A stretch of 18,834 bases of DNA from an uncultured Frankineae bacterium (GTDB lineage: Bacteria; Actinomycetota; Actinomycetes; Mycobacteriales; SCTD01): assembly GCA_902805805.1 (NCBI GenBank), contig CADCUE010000013.1:1-18834 (forward strand), read 5' to 3'. How positions within the stretch are numbered: position 1 is the stretch's first letter; each line of letters starts with the position of its first letter. The notes under the pieces were generated by a model. The model did not search any database and had not been told where the DNA came from. It saw only the letters and a program-made list of their open reading frames with translations. The translations under genes were made by a program, and so were the position numbers. Positions 2,181-12,015 of the stretch are shown piece after piece.

Positions 2181-3308
2181 ATGGCACTTCCTGCGGCGTT
2201 CACCCGTGGCCCGGTGCCGCGGTTCGTGACCGCCGTGGTGCTCGCCCTGCCGCGGGGCATCACCCGGCTGCGCCGCTCTCCACCGCCGGAAGGGCCGGCA
2301 CTCGTCGGCCTCGTGCTGCTCGCGGTGCTCCTCGTCGTCGGCGGCGAGATGCTCGGCAAGGAGTACGTGCCGCCGGCCTCCCAGGTGCTGCCGCTGCTCG
2401 GCGGCAGCCTGCTGCTGCGCCGCAAGGCGATGCGCGCCCTGCTCCTCGTGGTCGCCGGCTGCCTGGCGTACGCGCTGTTCGACATGAAGCTGTTGGACGT
2501 CCGTCCGGGCGCGCTGGTGGTCGTGCTCGTCACGGCCGCCGTGAGCTACGAGTTCAGCCGCTCCCGCGAGGAGACCGGGCTGAGCGGGTCCTCCGGTGAC
2601 ACCTTCGTCGTCGAGCTGCGGCAACGGCTGCAGCGGCAGGGCGAGCTGCCCCGGCTGCCGAGCGGCTGGCGCGGCGAGGCCGTGCTGAGCCCGGCCGGTG
2701 GCGGGCCGTTCGCCGGGGACTTCGTGGTCAGCGCCCTGCGGGACGAGGGCCGGTGCCTCGAGCTCGCCCTGGTCGACGTCTCCGGCAAGGGCATCGAGGC
2801 GGGCACCCGCGCGCTGCTGCTGTCCGGCGCCCTCGGCGGGCTGCTCGGCTCGGTGCGCTCGGACGGCTTCCTGCCCTCCGCGAACCGCTACCTCGACCGG
2901 CAGGAGTGGGACGAGGGCTTCGCCACGGCGGTGCACCTGGTCGTCGACCTCGTCGACGGGAGCTTCTCGGTGGAGTCGGCCGGTCATCCGCCGGTCGCGC
3001 TGTTCGACGCCGGATCGGGCCGGTGGAGCCTGCTCGGAGCCCACGGGGTGGCGCTGGGCCTGCTGCCCGAGGCGTCGTACGAGGCTGTCACCGGCCGGCT
3101 GGACCGCGGCGACGCGCTGATCCTCTACACCGACGGGCTGGTCGAGGTGCCGGGACGCGACCTCGAGGTCGGCATCGACAAGCTGCTGGGCGAGGCCGAG
3201 CGGCTCGTGCCGCACGGCTTCACCGGCGGAGGTCAGCTGCTGGTCTCGCGCGTGGCGACCGCGGGCACGGACGACCGTGGACTCGTGCTGCTCTGGCGCG
3301 ACACGTAG
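2181..3308 (+). CDS. Membrane-anchored PP2C/SpoIIE-type serine phosphatase
   Basis: Predicted 375-residue inner-membrane phosphatase. Residues 1-125 hold three to four hydrophobic helices (about 39-56, 66-80, 84-102 and 110-124). Residues 140-375 form a PPM/SpoIIE domain. The metal-binding aspartates expected of the family are present: Asp180 in FAGDF, Asp199 in LVDVSGKG, Asp318 in YTDGLVE, and Asp364/365 near the end before the final LVLLWR strand. Such enzymes usually dephosphorylate STAS anti-anti-sigma factors. No STAS or kinase gene adjoins this one, so its target is unknown. The ATG at 2181 is chosen because the hydrophobic region follows it directly and the in-frame sequence upstream runs through the divergent acetyltransferase gene. 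It is tail-to-tail with aat, with 5 bp between stops. Confidence 0.88.
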   Translation: MALPAAFTRGPVPRFVTAVVLALPRGITRLRRSPPPEGPALVGLVLLAVLLVVGGEMLGKEYVPPASQVLPLLGGSLLLRRKAMRALLLVVAGCLAYALFDMKLLDVRPGALVVVLVTAAVSYEFSRSREETGLSGSSGDTFVVELRQRLQRQGELPRLPSGWRGEAVLSPAGGGPFAGDFVVSALRDEGRCLELALVDVSGKGIEAGTRALLLSGALGGLLGSVRSDGFLPSANRYLDRQEWDEGFATAVHLVVDLVDGSFSVESAGHPPVALFDAGSGRWSLLGAHGVALGLLPEASYEAVTGRLDRGDALILYTDGLVEVPGRDLEVGIDKLLGEAERLVPHGFTGGGQLLVSRVATAGTDDRGLVLLWRDT

Positions 3309-4109: not shown

Positions 4110-4124
4110 CCGTAGGACCTACGG
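4110..4124. repeat. Perfect 15-bp inverted repeat at the kinase/aat junction
   Basis: CCGTAGG-A-CCTACGG, with 7-bp arms, overlaps the kinase stop codon (4119-4121) and ends 8 bp before the aat start codon. As RNA it could form a 6-bp hairpin with a 3-nt loop next to the aat ribosome-binding region. It could therefore affect translational coupling or be a small operator. Function is inference. Confidence 0.5.
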
Positions 4125-5897
4125 AGCGCCGACCTGCACGTCCTGGAGCGGCCACCACACGGCCGCGGTGCCCTCGGCCGTCGCGAGCAGCAGAGCGGCG
4201 GTCAGCGCCAGCGCGACCGCGACTGCGACGGCTCCGGCGGTCCCGGGAGTCGCCGCCACGAGTGCGCCGCGCAGCAGGCGCCGGGACGGTGCGTGCGCCC
4301 GTCGGCTGAGCGCGGTCAGGAAGCCGACGACGACGCCGGCGGCGGCGGTCAGCTCGGGCCGCTCGAGCCCGCTGACGTCGGGCGAGCTGAGCCAGACCAG
4401 GCCCGCCGGCACGGCGGCCGCCAGCAGGAGCATGGGCAGGCTGAGCAGCGTGTCGCCGAGGGCCAGCACGGCGTACCACGGCGAGCTCAGGGCGGTGACG
4501 ACCGGGTCGCGGCGGCGCTGTCCACGACGCTCGCGTCGCCCGCGCAGCCGGTCGCCGGCGCGTCCGGTCGCCCGGAGCAGGACGAGCAGCACCAGGGCGG
4601 CGCCGGCGCCGACGACCGGCGCGACCAGAGTGGCAGCGCCGAGCAGCCCGGCGCCGGCGGCCGCCGTCGCTCCTGCCTGCAGGCGGCGGGCGGGGGAGCG
4701 GTGCGGGTCGGCCTGCTCGTCGAGGATGGCGTCGTCCGCGTCCCAGTCGCCGGGCCCCCACTCGTCACGGCCCCACTCGTCACGGCCCCACTCGTCACGG
4801 CCCCCGCCGTCGGGGTCCTCCTGTCCGTGCCCGCGCGCCCCGTCGTCGGCCCCGTCGTCTGCTCCGTCGTCGGGCACGTCGTCGGCCGGCGGCGCTGCGG
4901 GCCAGGGAGCACGTGCCGCGAGCACGGGCCGCGGGCCGGTGGAGGCGGTCGCCAGCTCGCGCACGGGCTCGGTCAGCCCCCGCGTGCCGGCCCTGGGCAC
5001 CGTGTCGCTCGGGTCGTGCGCCGGACGCGCGGTGTGCAGCACGGAGGTGGCGTCGACGTCGTGCGGGAGGTGCACGGTGACCGGCGCGGCCGCCGTCGTC
5101 CCGCCGAGCGCGCGCAGCAGGCTGCCGGCGTCGGGCCGCCGTGCCGGGTCCGGGTCCATCGCGGCCGAGACCAGGGCGGCCAGCGGCTCCGGCAGGCCGT
5201 CGAGGTCGGGCTGGCCGTGCACGATGCGGTACAGCACCGCTTCGGGTCGTCCGGTGCCGTACGGCGGGCGGCCGGTGCCCGCGAGCGCGACCGTCGCCCC
5301 CCAGGCGTGCACGTCCACGGCGGCGCTGACGGCCGAGCCGATGACCTGCTCCGGCGCGAGGTAGCCCGGCGTGCCGATGATCAGGCCGCTGCGGGTCAGC
5401 GCCGTGACGTCGACAGCGGTCGCCAGGCCGAGGTCGATGACGTGCGGCTGGCCGTCGAGGACGAGGACGTTGCCGGGCGTCAGGTCCCGGTGCACGACGC
5501 CGGCGCCGTGCAGGGCGGCGAGCGCGTCCGCCAGACCCCGCGCCAGCACGTGCAGCTCGTCCGGCGGGAGCGGTCCCGAGCGGCTGACGAGGTCGTCGAG
5601 CCGCGTCCCCGGCACGAAGCGGGTCACCAGGTAGGGGGTGTCGGCCTCGACGTCGGCGTCCAGCACCTCGACGAGGTGCGGTCCGCGGACCCGGCGCAGG
5701 GCGTCCAGCTCGTGCCGGAAGCGGCGCCGGGCCTCCGGGTCCGGGAAGCCGTCGCGCAGGACCTTCACCGCGACGGCCCGGTCGTCGGGGGAGACGCCGA
5801 GGTAGACGGTGCCCATGCCGCCCTGCCCGATCCGGCCCAGCAGGCGGTGCGGTCCGACGCAGGCCGGGTCCGACGGTCGCAGTGGCGTGACCGGCAC
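4119..5897 (-). CDS. Membrane-bound Ser/Thr protein kinase (PknB-like family)
   Basis: A 592-residue Hanks-type kinase. The N-terminal kinase domain (about 17-265) shows the glycine loop GQGGMG at 24-29, Lys45 in AVKVL, a helix-C Glu63, catalytic loop HRDLTPGN at 136-143, a DLG instead of DFG at 155-157, GTPGYLAPE at 175-183 and the conserved AWG near 198. The family lysine of HRDLKPxN is Thr140, a change also seen in other actinomycete kinases. Residues 338-400 are an acidic, low-complexity linker with short repeats. Residues 405-580 hold at least four hydrophobic segments, so the C-terminus is multi-spanning rather than carrying extracellular PASTA domains. GTG at 5897 is chosen because GGGGAGG lies 4 bp upstream. 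It lies between the small membrane peptide gene (83 bp upstream) and aat. Confidence 0.93.
   Translation of the reverse strand: MPVTPLRPSDPACVGPHRLLGRIGQGGMGTVYLGVSPDDRAVAVKVLRDGFPDPEARRRFRHELDALRRVRGPHLVEVLDADVEADTPYLVTRFVPGTRLDDLVSRSGPLPPDELHVLARGLADALAALHGAGVVHRDLTPGNVLVLDGQPHVIDLGLATAVDVTALTRSGLIIGTPGYLAPEQVIGSAVSAAVDVHAWGATVALAGTGRPPYGTGRPEAVLYRIVHGQPDLDGLPEPLAALVSAAMDPDPARRPDAGSLLRALGGTTAAAPVTVHLPHDVDATSVLHTARPAHDPSDTVPRAGTRGLTEPVRELATASTGPRPVLAARAPWPAAPPADDVPDDGADDGADDGARGHGQEDPDGGGRDEWGRDEWGRDEWGPGDWDADDAILDEQADPHRSPARRLQAGATAAAGAGLLGAATLVAPVVGAGAALVLLVLLRATGRAGDRLRGRRERRGQRRRDPVVTALSSPWYAVLALGDTLLSLPMLLLAAAVPAGLVWLSSPDVSGLERPELTAAAGVVVGFLTALSRRAHAPSRRLLRGALVAATPGTAGAVAVAVALALTAALLLATAEGTAAVWWPLQDVQVGAP
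4756..4800. repeat. Three perfect tandem copies of a 15-bp unit inside the kinase gene
   Basis: The unit CCCCACTCGTCACGG occurs three times head to tail with no mismatch. On the coding strand it encodes RDEWG repeats at about residues 367-381 in the acidic linker between the kinase domain and the membrane helices. The unit length keeps the frame, so copy number can vary without breaking the gene. A neighbouring DDGA repeat (about 343-354) makes the whole linker repeat-rich. Confidence 0.85.
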
Positions 5898-7718: not shown

Positions 7719-8612
7719 TCAACCTCCCGCGGGGGCAGGCCCCTGCGGCGCCAGGACGGTGAGCGCCCCGGGCAGCACGTCGACCTCGACGGGCAGCGGC
7801 CCGACCGGTTCGCCGTCGGCGTACGCCGTCATGGCCGGGGCCTCGAGCCGGACGGTGCGGGCACGGAACGTCCGGACCTCGGGTCGGCCGACGTGCCGAC
7901 CGCGGTAGACCGACGGGAACAGCCGCAGGAACCGCGCGGTCGGCAACGGGGTGAGGACCGTGACGTCGAGCAGGCCGTCGGTGGGATCGGCGTCCGGGCA
8001 GACGAGCATCCCGCCGCCGTACGAGCGGCTGTTGCCGACGGCGACCAGCATCGCCGGCAGGTGCAGCGGCACCCCGTCGATGACGACGTCGTACGGCACA
8101 GGGCGGAACACCCGGAGCTCGGCGAGCACTGCCAGGGGGTAGCGGGCGGCGCCGCGCGGCCAGGTCAGGGCGTTGGCCCGCTCGGTGACGCGAGCGTCGA
8201 AGCCGGACGACAGGACGGTGACGAAGACCCGGCCACCCACCCGCCCGACGTCGAGCGCGCGGCGCCGTCCGTGCAGCACCACGTCGACCGCGCTGAGCGG
8301 GTCGGCCAGGCCGAGCATCCGGGCCGCGTCGTTGCCCGTGCCGGCGGGCACGACGGCCAGCGGCACCCCGGTGCCGAGGACGGCGGTGGCCGCGAGGTTG
8401 ACCAGCCCGTCCCCGCCGAGCGCGGCGAGCGCGTCGACGCCGCCGGCGACCGCCTGCCGGGCCAGCTCGGCCGCGCCGGCGGCGTCGTCGCCGACCAGCA
8501 CGTCGACGTGCGCGCCGCCGGCCCGCAGCCGGTCCCTCACCGCAGCCGTCAGCCGCTGCCCGCGTCCGCCGCCGGCGGTCGGGTTCACGAGCAGCGCGAC
8601 CCGGAGCGGCAC
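7719..8612 (-). CDS. Diacylglycerol/sphingosine kinase family lipid kinase (DagK catalytic domain)
   Basis: A 297-residue soluble lipid kinase of the DagK_cat/YegS-like family, expected to phosphorylate diacylglycerol or a related membrane lipid. Motifs: LLVNPTAGGGRG at 7-18, GGDGL at 66-70 (the family usually has GGDGT), and VPAGTGNDAARMLG at 88-101, the nucleotide-binding part. The C-terminal half has GNSRSYGGGMLVCPDADPTD and then DGLLDVTVL, typical of the second domain. GTG 8612 is the likely start. It has no Shine-Dalgarno, but a TAGCGT -10 box ends 7 bp before it, suggesting a leaderless transcript. It is 22 bp after the phosphoribosyltransferase stop, so it may be made both by read-through and from its own promoter. 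Confidence 0.9.
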   Translation of the reverse strand: MPLRVALLVNPTAGGGRGQRLTAAVRDRLRAGGAHVDVLVGDDAAGAAELARQAVAGGVDALAALGGDGLVNLAATAVLGTGVPLAVVPAGTGNDAARMLGLADPLSAVDVVLHGRRRALDVGRVGGRVFVTVLSSGFDARVTERANALTWPRGAARYPLAVLAELRVFRPVPYDVVIDGVPLHLPAMLVAVGNSRSYGGGMLVCPDADPTDGLLDVTVLTPLPTARFLRLFPSVYRGRHVGRPEVRTFRARTVRLEAPAMTAYADGEPVGPLPVEVDVLPGALTVLAPQGPAPAGG

Positions 8613-8634: not shown

Positions 8635-9267
8635 TCAGGGCGGAGCCTGCAGCAGCGCCACGACCTCCTGCTCGGAGGTGGGCGTGAAGTCGTCGTACCA
8701 GGTGGACACCGACCGGAAGCGGTGGGGGGTCAGCACGGCGACCACCTCGTCCGCATGCTGCCGCAGGTCGGCGAGGGTGTCCGACGGGGCGACGGGGACC
8801 GCGAGGACCACCCGGCCGGCACCGGCCGCCCGGAGCACCTGCAGGGCCGCTCGCGCGGTGGCTCCGGTGGCCAGGCCGTCGTCGACGACCACCGCCGTCC
8901 TGCCCTCGACGGGGCACGGCGTCCGGCCCGACCTCAGGCGGGCAGCGCGGCGCTCCACCTCTGCCTGCTCGCGCCGAAGGACCTCGTCGAACTCCTGCTC
9001 GGTCACCCCGGTCCGGCGCAGCAGCCCGACGTTGCGCACGACGACCCCGCCCTCGCCGACGGCACCCATGGCCAGCTCCGGCTGCCCGGGGAGCCCCAGC
9101 TTGCGCACGACGACGGCGTCCAGCGGGGCGGCCAGGGCGCGGGCCACCTCGTCCGCGACGGGGACACCGCCGCGCGGGAGCCCGAGCACGACGACGTCCT
9201 GGCCGCGCAGGTGCCCGAGGCGACCGGACAGCACCCGGCCGGCGTGGCCCCGGTCTGCGAAGCGCAT
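8635..9267 (-). CDS. Phosphoribosyltransferase-domain protein
   Basis: A 210-residue type I PRTase-fold protein. The PRPP loop TAVVVDDGLATGATA at about 124-138 is diagnostic; LGLPRGGVPVADEVA at 28-42 and VVRKLGLPGQPELAMGA at 53-69 are the other conserved blocks. This is the stand-alone subfamily often found near stress genes. Substrate is unknown; it is not a recognisable hypoxanthine, uracil or orotate enzyme. ATG 9267 is preferred over GTG 9273 because GAGGAG lies 5 bp before the ATG and overlaps the GTG. It follows the STAS gene by 12 bp and so is probably the fourth gene of the RsbQ-type operon. Confidence 0.9.
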   Translation of the reverse strand: MRFADRGHAGRVLSGRLGHLRGQDVVVLGLPRGGVPVADEVARALAAPLDAVVVRKLGLPGQPELAMGAVGEGGVVVRNVGLLRRTGVTEQEFDEVLRREQAEVERRAARLRSGRTPCPVEGRTAVVVDDGLATGATARAALQVLRAAGAGRVVLAVPVAPSDTLADLRQHADEVVAVLTPHRFRSVSTWYDDFTPTSEQEVVALLQAPP

Positions 9268-9279
9268 GGCCACTCCTCG

Positions 9280-9633
9280 TCAGGTCGGGTGCTCGAGCCC
9301 CATCGCGGTCAGAGCGTCCGGCAGCGTGTCGCTGACCAGCGCGTCGGCCATCCCCACGATCTCCAGGACGCGGCGGCAGGGGCCGGTCGGCGGGCAGACG
9401 ACGCGGAACGGCACACCGCACTGCCGGCTCTCGCGGGCGAACCGGTCGACGAGCCGACAGCCGGAGCTGTCGAAGAAGGTGACCTCGGTCAGATCCAGGA
9501 CCAGCGCGGTCGCGCCGGCCACCAGGTCGGCGACCCCGGGGAGCAGCAGATCCGTGCTGCGGACGTCCACGTCGCCGACGGCGTGCAGCACGCGCACGCC
9601 GGGCGGCTCCTCGAGGGTCTGCACGGTCATCAT
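9280..9633 (-). CDS. rsbV-like: STAS-domain anti-anti-sigma factor (RsbV/SpoIIAA-like)
   Basis: A 117-residue single STAS domain. The strand-helix motif VLDLTEVTFFDSSG at 45-58 holds the DSSG phosphorylation site; Ser57 corresponds to the serine phosphorylated in SpoIIAA and RsbV. In the known pathway the unphosphorylated form binds an anti-sigma kinase and frees the sigma factor. The ATG at 9633 overlaps the TGA of the upstream PP2C phosphatase as ATGA, so the two are translationally coupled. The phosphatase is therefore the obvious enzyme that dephosphorylates this protein. No RsbW-type kinase or sigma factor is in the window. A second ATG follows directly at 9630. Confidence 0.92.
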   Translation of the reverse strand: MMTVQTLEEPPGVRVLHAVGDVDVRSTDLLLPGVADLVAGATALVLDLTEVTFFDSSGCRLVDRFARESRQCGVPFRVVCPPTGPCRRVLEIVGMADALVSDTLPDALTAMGLEHPT

Positions 9634-11213
9634 CGGGCAGCGTCCACCGCGACAGGAGCCCGGTGCGGCCGGTGCTGCACGTCCGGGGACCGGGCCTGGT
9701 GCACGGCCGTCCCGTCCCAGGACAGCAGCAGCAGGCAGACGTCGTCCCGGACCACCTCGTCGACGAGCAGGGTGTCGGTCAGCGCAGCGACCGCCTCGGG
9801 CAACGGCAGGTCGCGCACCCGCTCCCCGGTCGCCACCAGCAGGTCCAGACCGTCGTCGAGCTGGCGACCACGGCGCTCGACCAGCCCGTCGGTGTAGAGC
9901 AGCAGGCGGTCGCCGGGCTCCAGCCGGACCTCCGCCTGCTGCCGCAGCGGGAGGTGCAGGAAGCCGCCGAGCGGGGTGGACCTGCCGTCCCACAGCAGTC
10001 GCGGTGCTCCCTGCGCCGGCACGAGCAGGGGAGGGGGATGGCCCGCGCAGGCGTACGTCACTCGACCCGTCGCGAGGTCCAGCTCCGCGAGCACGACCGT
10101 GGCCATCCGCGCCGCCTCGACCCGCTCCACGAAGGCGTCCAGCCGTGAGAGCAGTCGGGACGGTCCCGTCCGCGGGTCCGCGATGGCGCGCACCGCGCTG
10201 CGCAGCTGACCCATCGCGCTGGCGGCTCCCAGCCCGCGACCGACGACGTCGCCGACGAGCAGGCACAGCCGCCCCTCGCCGGACAGGAAGACGTCGTACC
10301 AGTCGCCGCCGACCTCGAGCATCTCGACGCCCGGCCGGTAGGCGGTGGCGACGGCGAAGCGCGGGTCGACCGGCGGGTCGACGGCCAGCAGCGAGTGCTG
10401 GAGCTCCCGGGCGACGCCGGCGCTCTGCTCGTAGCGCTGCGCGCGGTCCAGCGCCAGACCGGCCTGCTGGCCGACGGCGGTGAGCACCTCGAGGTCGAGC
10501 GGCTGCCCGCCGGGGTCGCGACCGGCGGTGACCACCAGGACGCCCTGCAGGTCGGTCTGCCCGTGCAGCGGGACCACGACCCGTCCGGACTGCTCGACCG
10601 CGCCGTCGGCCTGCAGCACGGACGGAGGCGGGTCCGCCCGGGCGGCCCGGCTCGAGGCGGGGGTGCGCAGCACCAGCACGCCGTCGGAGTCGGCCAGCAG
10701 CAGCGCCGCCTCCGCCGCCCCGAGGGGGCCGAGGGCCGCCGCGACGAGCGCGTCCGCGACGGCGGCGACCCCGAGGGCCTGCGACAGCGCGGCGGTCGTG
10801 CTCTGCAGCGAGCGCACCTGCGCGGCGCTGCGCTCGGCGGCGGCCCTGGCGGCGCGCAGCTCGCGCTCGAAGCCGGTCCGGCCGCCGGCGGCCGCGAGGG
10901 CGACGTCGACGTGGCCGGTCGCGGGGTCCGCCACGGCGGTCAGGACCACCGGCCGGCGACCCTGAGGGCCGGCCAGCTCGAGGGCCACCTCGTCGGCCCG
11001 TCCGTCGACGCGCAGCAGCGGTGACAGGTGGGTCTCCCAGTAGATGCGGCCGCCGACCGACAGCAGCTCGGGCAGCCGACGACGGCCGACGACGTCCTCG
11101 CGCGGGAGACCCACCCAGTCCAGGAACGTCGCGTTGGCCTCGCCGACGGTCGCGTCGGGCAGCAGGCGCAGCAGACCGCAGGGCGCGCGGTCCCACGGCT
11201 CGTGCGAGGTCAG
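9630..11213 (-). CDS. rsbP-like: RsbP-like PAS-GAF-PP2C serine phosphatase
   Basis: Predicted activator phosphatase of the STAS protein encoded next. Domains, numbered from CTG 11213: PAS about 8-70 (DRAPCGLLRL, EANATFLDWVG, GRIYWETHLSPLLR), a helical linker about 113-145, GAF about 145-260, and PP2C/SpoIIE about 285-500. Metal-site aspartates are Asp304 (GGDWYD), Asp322 (GDVVGRG), Asp442 (YTDG) and Asp491 (RDDV). The start is a problem. The first ATG, GTG or TTG in frame is GTG 11114, which has no Shine-Dalgarno and would cut off the first 33 residues of a good PAS domain. The frame is open back to a stop at 11226, and the only plausible initiator there is the CTG at 11213, 1 bp after the RsbQ-like stop. 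I therefore give the longer form; GTG 11114 is the conservative alternative. Bacillus subtilis RsbP is PAS-PP2C and needs RsbQ. Confidence 0.85.
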   Translation of the reverse strand: MTSHEPWDRAPCGLLRLLPDATVGEANATFLDWVGLPREDVVGRRRLPELLSVGGRIYWETHLSPLLRVDGRADEVALELAGPQGRRPVVLTAVADPATGHVDVALAAAGGRTGFERELRAARAAAERSAAQVRSLQSTTAALSQALGVAAVADALVAAALGPLGAAEAALLLADSDGVLVLRTPASSRAARADPPPSVLQADGAVEQSGRVVVPLHGQTDLQGVLVVTAGRDPGGQPLDLEVLTAVGQQAGLALDRAQRYEQSAGVARELQHSLLAVDPPVDPRFAVATAYRPGVEMLEVGGDWYDVFLSGEGRLCLLVGDVVGRGLGAASAMGQLRSAVRAIADPRTGPSRLLSRLDAFVERVEAARMATVVLAELDLATGRVTYACAGHPPPLLVPAQGAPRLLWDGRSTPLGGFLHLPLRQQAEVRLEPGDRLLLYTDGLVERRGRQLDDGLDLLVATGERVRDLPLPEAVAALTDTLLVDEVVRDDVCLLLLSWDGTAVHQARSPDVQHRPHRAPVAVDAAR

Positions 11214-11214
11214 G

Positions 11215-12015
11215 TCACGCCGCCGTCAGGTAGCGGCGCATCGCGTCGACCAGCTGGTCCGGAGCGCTGAGGTTGGGGCAGTGGCCGGTCGCGTCGAGCA
11301 CGACCAGCTCGCTGCCCTCGAGGTGCTCGGCGACGTAGGTCCCGACCTCGACGGGGGCGATGACGTCCTCCCGGCACTGCACGACGAGCGAGGGGGTGCG
11401 CACCCGGGCCAGGTCGTCGCGGTTGTCCGACAGGAACGTCGTGCGCGCGAACTGCCGCGCGATGCCGGGGTCGGTGCGGCAGAAGCTGCTCGCCAGCTCG
11501 TCCCCCAGCTCGGGGCGGTCGGGTGTGCCCATGATGACCGGCGCGATGTGCTGCGACCAGCCGAGGTAGTTGCCGTCCATCGTGTCGAGCAGCTCGTCGA
11601 TCTCGTCGGCGGTGAAGCCCCCCCGGTAGCCCTCGTCGTCGACGTAGCGCGGGCTCGGGCCCACCAGGACCAGCCGGTCGAACAGCTCCGGTCGCTCTGC
11701 GGCGGCCAGCACGCCGATCATCGCGCTCACCGAGTGCCCGACGAAGACGACGGGGGGCAGCTCCAGCGCCTCGACGAGCTCGACGACGTCGGCGGCGTAG
11801 CCCTCCAGCCGTGCGTAGCGGGACGGGTCGTACGCCGACAGGTCGGAGCCGCCCGCGCCGACGTGGTCGAACAGCACCACGCGGTGGGTCGGCTCGAAGG
11901 CCGGCACGACGTGGCGCCACATGCCCTTGTCGCAGCCGAAGCCGTGCGCGAGGACCAGGGGAGGCGAGTCCGGTCGGCCCGCCACCGAGACGTTGTTCCT
12001 CTCCAGGACGTCCAC
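11215..12015 (-). CDS. rsbQ: RsbQ-like alpha/beta hydrolase
   Basis: A 266-residue alpha/beta hydrolase very like Bacillus subtilis RsbQ (269 aa), which activates the PAS phosphatase RsbP under energy stress. It is of the same fold as the KAI2/D14 receptors. Shared blocks are AHGFGCDKGMW at 23-33, LFDHVGAGGSDL at 48-59, YDPSRYARLEGYAADV at 62-77, VFVGHS at 90-95, LVGPSPRYV at 117-125, GNYLGW at 148-153, CRTDPGIARQFA at 179-190 and ATGHCPNLS at 242-250. The catalytic triad is Ser95, Asp217 and His245. The residue after the nucleophile region is SVSAM where RsbQ has SVGAL. GTG 12015 is the chosen start: it matches the RsbQ N-terminus (VLERNN) and follows a TAATCT -10 box by 7 bp, with no Shine-Dalgarno. 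It is the first gene of the operon, with the phosphatase immediately downstream. Confidence 0.93.
   Translation of the reverse strand: MDVLERNNVSVAGRPDSPPLVLAHGFGCDKGMWRHVVPAFEPTHRVVLFDHVGAGGSDLSAYDPSRYARLEGYAADVVELVEALELPPVVFVGHSVSAMIGVLAAAERPELFDRLVLVGPSPRYVDDEGYRGGFTADEIDELLDTMDGNYLGWSQHIAPVIMGTPDRPELGDELASSFCRTDPGIARQFARTTFLSDNRDDLARVRTPSLVVQCREDVIAPVEVGTYVAEHLEGSELVVLDATGHCPNLSAPDQLVDAMRRYLTAA

What the first reader, a model, noticed from the sequence alone, without database searches (positions are those of the whole stretch)
9280..12015. RsbQ-RsbP-RsbV type energy-stress module in an actinobacterium
An RsbQ-like hydrolase, a PAS-GAF-PP2C phosphatase and a STAS antagonist lie in one tightly packed operon (1-bp gap, then ATGA overlap). 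RsbQ-RsbP is best known from the Bacillus sigma-B pathway. Here the phosphatase gained a GAF domain, and no sigma factor or RsbW kinase is nearby. The RsbQ/KAI2-like pocket suggests that a small-molecule ligand feeds the switch, so the operon may be a ligand-gated partner switch with an unknown sigma target.
Basis: partly seen in the sequence, partly recalled or inferred. Interest (0 to 1): 0.7.

Follow-up and report, generated by a model that had tools for sequence, protein, structure and literature searches.

The report
RsbQ-gated phosphatase switch, kinase missing
Three neighbouring genes in an uncultured actinobacterium encode a receptor-like hydrolase, the phosphatase it is expected to control and that phosphatase's likely target; the parts are familiar, but this copy lacks the kinase domain that many close relatives carry, so the switch probably borrows a kinase from elsewhere in the cell.

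Summary
On the minus strand lie an RsbQ-type hydrolase (11215-12015; 52% identical to Bacillus RsbQ over 263 residues), a PAS-GAF-PP2C phosphatase (9630-11213) and a STAS antagonist with a DSSG motif (9280-9633). RsbQ followed by this PAS type is a published module (Nadezhdin 2011, PMC3183031). Here the PAS follows RsbQ in 79 of 80 relatives (the 80th is cut by its contig end), and PAS-PP2C directly follows RsbQ in 77 of 80 loci fetched from one order. The STAS gene is a minority companion (13 of 80).

The window's copy and its nearest kin lack it; loss is the simplest reading, but gain is not excluded. Kinase and sigma factor must then act in trans; candidates exist in relatives' genomes, none could be checked in the window's own genome.

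"Energy stress" is not supported; ligand gating is plausible and untested. A known kind, new variant, moderate interest.

The parts
11215..12015 (-). Q: RsbQ-type alpha/beta hydrolase, GTG start; catalytic Ser101, Asp223, His251 in the numbering of P0002
   Evidence: Pfam Abhydrolase; PDB 1wom RsbQ E 6.7e-90, 136 of 263 aligned residues identical; triad residues 81 of 81 in the aligned set
9630..11213 (-). P: PAS-GAF-PP2C phosphatase, 527 aa if it starts at the CTG at 11213
   Evidence: no ATG/GTG/TTG start in frame that would keep the PAS whole
10890..11177 (-). RsbP-type PAS domain (P residues about 13-108)
10446..10769 (-). GAF domain (P residues about 149-256), flanked by long helices 109-145 and 241-276
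9714..10376 (-). PP2C/SpoIIE phosphatase domain (P residues about 280-500) with motifs GGDWYD 302, GD 321-322, TDG 441-443, RDD 489-491
9630..9713 (-). disordered tail of P where many relatives carry an RsbW-type HATPase_c_2 domain instead
   Evidence: pLDDT under 50 for residues 513-527; relatives' tails, Pfam HATPase_c_2 in P0013, P0046, P0089, P0122 and L042
9280..9633 (-). V: STAS antagonist (RsbV/SpoIIAA type) with DSSG at residues 55-58
   Evidence: Pfam STAS 1.2e-11; TIGR00377 41.8 bits, below its cut-off 53.45; DSSG in 16 of the 31 STAS hits of both locus sets, DSxG in 27 of 31, none found in 4

Best explanation
A three-gene RsbQ-RsbP-RsbV type partner-switch input. Most likely working order: (1) Q binds, and perhaps turns over, an unknown small molecule (inferred). 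(2) Loaded Q acts on the PAS domain of a P dimer (inferred from B. subtilis genetics; RsbP-PAS type and constant adjacency shown here). (3) The signal passes through the helices that flank an added GAF domain, which may take a second input, to the PP2C domain (architecture shown by model, signalling inferred). (4) PP2C removes phosphate from the DSSG serine of V (inferred). (5) Free V titrates an RsbW-type kinase/anti-sigma factor. In many relatives that kinase is the C-terminal domain of P itself; in this copy it is absent, so the opposing kinase and the sigma factor must be encoded elsewhere, which opens the switch to a shared trans network.
For: Q is 52% identical to RsbQ with its triad intact. 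PAS right after Q in 79 of 80 relatives, the 80th cut by its contig end with a partial PAS hit; 77 of 80 loci from one order have PAS...PP2C directly after Q, L153 has it about 0.8 kb further on, L155 has PAS-GGDEF-EAL, L192 has no PAS. PP2C catalytic aspartates invariant in 50 rows. V has DSSG. HATPase_c_2 follows the PP2C domain in 8 of 80 relatives that also have STAS next and in 87 of the 120 best homologues (3 of the 87 are short hits, and the 120 include a near-copy of the window). Window clade without HATPase sits among HATPase-bearing rows. HATPase_c_2 hits in 8 of 8 relatives' genomes and SigBFG over its cut-off in 7 of 8; a STAS gene beside a HATPase gene elsewhere in 4 of 4 genomes looked at.
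Against: No biochemistry. No genome is held for the window, so its trans kinase and sigma factor are unseen. STAS adjoins in only 13 of 80 relatives, so V need not be the only or the main target. Distance correlations show no special Q-PAS link: partial r(Q,PAS|PP2C) 0.453 against r(Q,PP2C|PAS) 0.449, 137 rows. The C12 position of the RsbP-PAS signature is Cys in only 47 of 80 rows. The two database proteins that join Q to P or P to STAS (P0046, P0089) look like frameshift read-throughs, and L078's joined frame runs across masked letters, so no sound fusion was found. The start codon of P is not a standard one.
Confidence: 0.68

Rival explanations
1. The phosphatase's real target is a STAS protein elsewhere (for instance the one of the RsbV-RsbW pair beside the H+-pyrophosphatase gene); V is a duplicate or a bystander.
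For: Most Q-P loci have no STAS beside them: 67 of 80 relatives. A STAS-HATPase pair lies next to a H+-pyrophosphatase and a helicase gene in both relatives whose neighbourhood was scanned (in L199 the HATPase gene itself was not put to Pfam there, it is a hit).
Against: V overlaps P by four bases and keeps the DSSG motif; the P-HATPase-STAS order recurs in 8 of 80 relatives and in 4 or 5 of 80 loci of the order set.
Confidence: 0.18
2. Q is an enzyme that makes and hands over a ligand or cofactor for the PAS domain, which is the true sensor (model 1 of Nadezhdin et al.), rather than a receptor whose occupancy is read by the PAS (model 2). This is a rival for steps 1-2 only.
For: Triad Ser, Asp, His kept in 81 of 81 sequences; triad mutants of RsbQ are null in B. 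subtilis (PMC3183031 section 11).
Against: Triad conservation fits both models; plant relatives D14/KAI2 keep the triad and are receptors (recalled; KAI2 paper seen in passages).
Confidence: 0.4
3. The locus is decaying: P has no standard start codon after an indel near its start and has lost its kinase domain.
For: No ATG/GTG/TTG start that keeps the PAS whole; relatives often start P at a GTG overlapping the stop of Q. The near-identical database protein P0004 is called only from the GTG at 11114, 494 aa.
Against: The P frame is open throughout with GC3 0.94; catalytic residues kept; P0005 to P0008 have the same shape with ATG starts.
Confidence: 0.08
4. An energy-stress (ATP or nutrient) sensor as in the sigma-B pathway.
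For: Homology to RsbQ-RsbP, needed for the energy-stress response of B. subtilis (PMC3183031 abstract).
Against: The same paper says the cue of the module is unknown and that energy input may enter through the RsbW kinase instead (section 11).
Confidence: 0.15

Closest known systems
RsbQ-RsbP of Bacillus subtilis sigma-B pathway
   Same: RsbQ-type hydrolase gene directly before a gene for a protein with an N-terminal RsbP-type PAS domain and a C-terminal PP2C phosphatase; catalytic triad kept
   Different: GAF domain between PAS and PP2C; STAS gene directly downstream; no known sigma target
RsbQ-PAS sensing module (Nadezhdin, Brody, Price 2011, PMC3183031)
   Same: the module itself, 45 examples there, with PP2C, histidine kinase or GGDEF output; two Streptomyces among them; the same three outputs came up here (59 of 80 PP2C by tblastn; of 18 others scanned 16 histidine kinase and 2 GGDEF)
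   Different: the words GAF and STAS do not occur in that main text; RsbV and RsbW occur there only for B. subtilis in the passages shown
Rv1364c of Mycobacterium tuberculosis
   Same: PAS, PP2C, RsbW-type kinase and STAS domains in one order (PMC10950880 passage); best fold match of the P phosphatase domain, 3ke6
   Different: Rv1364c is one polypeptide; here Q is present, a GAF is added, V is a separate gene, and the kinase domain is absent in this copy
KAI2 / D14 karrikin and strigolactone receptors of plants
   Same: homologous hydrolase (PDB hits 8vcz, 5z7w, 3vxk and others, E about 1e-59 to 1e-62)
   Different: different partner proteins; no ligand known for the bacterial protein

Membership tests
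RsbQ-PAS module | RsbQ homologue encoded directly upstream of the PAS protein | tested here: met
   Q ends at 11215, P starts at 11213 or nearby
RsbQ-PAS module | RsbP-type PAS domain is the most N-terminal domain | tested here: met
   AlphaFold2 model, PAS at residues 13-108
RsbQ-PAS module | characteristic residues of RsbP-PAS (C10, L13, L48, Q53, F55, C56, Y59, E72, P86 region) | tested here: inconclusive
   window has C12, L15, L51, R56, Y58, W59, H62, E75, P88 at positions matched by spacing; the B. subtilis RsbP sequence was not held, so no direct alignment
RsbQ-PAS module | helical or coiled-coil linker to the output domain | tested here: met
   helices 109-145 and 241-276 in the model; no coiled-coil program was run
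RsbQ (Bacillus) family | Ser-His-Asp triad in an RsbQ/KAI2-type hydrolase | tested here: met
   S101, D223, H251; RsbQ best PDB hit
RsbQ (Bacillus) family | direct contact with and activation of the PAS phosphatase | not testable with these tools
   needs binding and phosphatase assays
PP2C/PPM phosphatase of SpoIIE/RsbU/RsbP type | SpoIIE profile and metal-binding aspartates | tested here: met
   Pfam 2e-44; invariant D304, D322, D442, D490, D491; which of these bind metal is recalled
RsbV-type antagonist | STAS domain with phosphorylatable serine in a DSxG motif | tested here: met
   STAS 1.2e-11; DSSG at 55; phosphorylation itself not testable
Rv1364c-type phosphatase-kinase protein | RsbW-type kinase domain after the PP2C domain in the same polypeptide | tested here: not met
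   no HATPase hit in the window; present in relatives
sigma-B energy-stress pathway | RsbW and a SigB/F-type sigma factor controlled by the module | tested here: inconclusive
   none found in the window; no genome held for it; SigBFG over cut-off in 7 of 8 relatives, elsewhere in the genome; no SigB-like promoter pattern in the window, 0 found with 0.01 expected

The most novel reading that the evidence does not exclude
In this lineage the RsbQ homologue is a receptor for a diffusible butenolide- or lactone-like signal, as its plant relatives KAI2/D14 are, and the operon is a hormone-gated phosphatase; dropping the built-in kinase turned a closed, self-opposing switch into an open input that lets this signal feed a shared actinobacterial RsbV-RsbW network. 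About a third of genomes in one order would then carry an RsbQ-gated input (131 of 397).
Probability: 0.1. Interest if true: 0.8.

Novelty: new variant of a known kind. Interest (0 to 1): 0.42.

Why it matters
The ligand of RsbQ is unknown, and so is the endogenous ligand of its plant relative KAI2 (PMC10504578, abstract start in a search listing). Actinobacterial operons that place the hydrolase, its phosphatase, in many cases the kinase, and the antagonist side by side would give a compact assay for that ligand: the read-out is the phosphorylation state of one small protein. Comparing kinase-bearing and kinase-less copies would also show how a self-contained switch is rewired into a shared network.

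Tried and rejected
Natural fusions as proof of contact: P0046 (Q joined to P) and P0089 (P joined to STAS) came up, but both junctions read like a shifted frame (last residues of Q, last part of the HATPase; my reading, not tested on DNA). L078 looked like one frame over Q, PAS and PP2C, but the junction holds masked letters. None is used as evidence.

Co-evolution: partial distance correlations gave no PAS-specific signal. The Q profile used there and had been built with L078's long frame in it (seen); a clean profile confirmed Q in 161 of 161 loci and PAS with it in 160. In one search L078 was wrongly counted as lacking PAS and PP2C for this reason; and one search show both.

A joint alignment of Q and P rows on P0046 for a docking-like model came out badly aligned and was dropped. 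No complex was modelled. SigB-type promoter search: 0 matches, but only 0.01 expected, so it says nothing. PHROGs: only a general esterase/lipase family for Q. Plasmid search by DNA: two partial matches, none over 80% of the query.

Gain or loss of the kinase domain: the large FastTree tree (161 rows, 94 with, 67 without) needs 13 changes, 6 forced by well-supported branches. The careful tree of 47 chosen rows needs 10 (7-10 over bootstraps), only 2 forced by well-supported branches, and its bootstrap had not settled; the branch that sets the window clade among HATPase-bearing rows has 88/87, below the star. The outgroup rows lack the domain, so gain is not excluded. L042, whose P is split over two frames, is not in either tree.

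Census limits: the 80 relatives are the best 80 of 236 confirmed, found with patterns from the window's own Q. The 80 order loci are 80 of about 142 matches in 131 genomes, taken from the better-scoring part of the list by hand, one per genome, not at random. Flank lengths differ (3.8 to 20.8 kb in the first set).

Literature: eight searches ran in the open PMC library; none of their listings showed an RsbQ-PAS-GAF-PP2C-kinase-STAS operon. Subscription papers are mostly missing there. The identification of the pair beside the H+-pyrophosphatase with the bldG locus of Streptomyces is recalled, not tested.
Full report
Observation. Q (12015-11215), P (11213-9630) and V (9633-9280) are packed on the minus strand, with V's start overlapping P's stop. 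A phosphoribosyltransferase gene (8635-9273) and a YegS-type lipid kinase gene (7719-8612) follow closely in the same direction, but neither they nor the MarR gene upstream had any tblastn hit at E 1e-4 in the 80 relatives' loci, so the conserved unit is Q-P, with V in some.

Start of P. The frame of P has no ATG, GTG or TTG between an upstream stop (11228-11226) and the GTG at 11114, which would cut into the PAS domain; a CTG at 11213 is the only near-standard start that keeps it. Relatives often begin P with a GTG overlapping the stop of Q. The near-identical database protein P0004 (494 aa, one residue different in the part shown) uses the late GTG. P0005, 78% identical, begins with ATG and has the whole PAS.

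Co-conservation. In the 80 best RsbQ relatives (of 236 confirmed) the PAS hit lies within about 200 bases after Q in 79; the 80th (L037) ends at its contig end and shows a partial PAS hit. PP2C follows in 59 of 80 by tblastn; of the 21 others 3 are cut by contig ends and the 18 scanned are histidine kinases (16) or GGDEF proteins (2), which repeats the published picture. In one order, an RsbQ-like protein occurs in 131 of 397 genomes. Of 80 fetched loci, 77 have PAS and PP2C directly after Q; L153 has PAS-GAF-PP2C-HATPase and STAS about 0.8 kb on, L155 has PAS-GGDEF-EAL, L192 has no PAS. Among the 78 with PAS and PP2C in one frame, the distance between the two domains falls into classes: 42-53 residues (31 loci, the classical form), about 170 (2 loci, the window's form), 228 (1) and 340-412 (44; GAF-type insertions by profile, and one of them, L121, shows two GAF stretches in Pfam).

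The missing kinase. In the first set a HATPase_c_2 domain and then STAS follow PP2C in 8 of 80 relatives; L034 (Kineococcus xinjiangensis), L066 and L077 have STAS downstream without it; L044 and L056 have STAS upstream; L074 has only a weak separate HATPase hit; so STAS adjoins in 13 of 80. In L042 P is split over two frames. Pfam confirms HATPase_c_2 in the five tested. Among the 120 best homologues of P, 87 have the domain by profile (3 of these are short hits) and 33 lack it, the window's near-copy among them. Trees place the window with P0005 to P0008, all without the domain (100/98 in the careful tree), inside a set that includes HATPase-bearing rows (starred in the FastTree tree, 88/87 in the careful one). 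The domain has come or gone several times: 13 changes in the large tree (6 forced by supported branches), 10 in the careful one (2 forced). Direction is not proven, since the outgroup rows lack it too.

Where a kinase could come from. All 8 relatives' genomes searched hold HATPase_c_2 hits (20 to 43 each at E 1e-3, some of them surely histidine kinases), and 7 of 8 hold a SigBFG sigma factor over the cut-off. In 4 of 4 genomes searched for STAS, one STAS hit lies right beside a HATPase hit; in the two scanned (L199, L200) this pair sits between a helicase and a H+-pyrophosphatase gene, which I recall as the bldG-type locus. Kineococcus xinjiangensis, which like the window lacks the fused kinase, is one of them. 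For the window's own organism nothing can be said, since no genome is held.

Mechanism. The best-supported account is the B. subtilis scheme: Q contacts the PAS domain and activates PP2C through helices, PP2C frees V of phosphate, and V draws an RsbW-type protein off its sigma factor. Only the parts, their order and their catalytic residues are shown here. The contact rests on published two-hybrid, pull-down and mutant data for RsbP (PMC3183031, abstract, sections 4 part 1, 6 and 11 part 1 seen). An AlphaFold2 model of 2RsbP/2RsbQ is published (PMC12143880, passages). My correlation test added nothing.

Comparison. It is a member of the RsbQ-PAS module by the features tested. It works like the B. 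subtilis pair but is not shown to belong to an energy-stress pathway. It resembles Rv1364c in parts, yet fails its defining one-chain kinase. Streptomyces has RsbQ homologues too: SCO3690 was deleted in S. lividans (PMC6295645, passages), and S. coelicolor is said to hold 45 RsbW, 17 RsbV and 44 RsbU/RsbP homologues (PMC8346170, passage). In the eight literature searches I saw no description of the operon with GAF, fused kinase and STAS.

Verdict. Real, well conserved in its Q-P core, of a known kind, with two variant features: the GAF insertion and the absent kinase domain next to a kept antagonist. Interest 0.42: a specialist would find it useful rather than startling; its best use is as a compact assay for the unknown RsbQ ligand.

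Noticed in passing
window about 2181-3308 (+): A second SpoIIE-family phosphatase (2.4e-28) with a hydrophobic N-terminal part, unrelated in place to the operon.
   Followed up: partly
window 4119-5897 (-): A Ser/Thr protein kinase (Pkinase 7.1e-37; AfsK/PknB-like by NCBIfam, below cut-offs).
   Followed up: no
window 8635-9273 and 7719-8612 (-): Phosphoribosyltransferase and YegS-type lipid kinase genes follow V closely and may be co-transcribed; no hits to them in the 80 relatives' loci.
   Followed up: partly
L007:10799-10995: About twenty tandem copies of a 9-base repeat (coding HPE) at the start of the Kineococcus sp. TRM81007 phosphatase gene, between the stop of Q and the PAS.
   Followed up: no
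L153: A PAS-GAF-PP2C-HATPase protein plus STAS gene about 0.8 kb after RsbQ instead of directly next to it.
   Followed up: no
L155:2017-4578: RsbQ followed by a PAS-GGDEF-EAL protein within an order where PP2C is the usual output.
   Followed up: no
L192: The only RsbQ of the 80 order loci without a PAS protein beside it.
   Followed up: partly
L042: Phosphatase gene of Verrucosispora sioxanthis split over two frames (real or sequencing error); described only.
   Followed up: no
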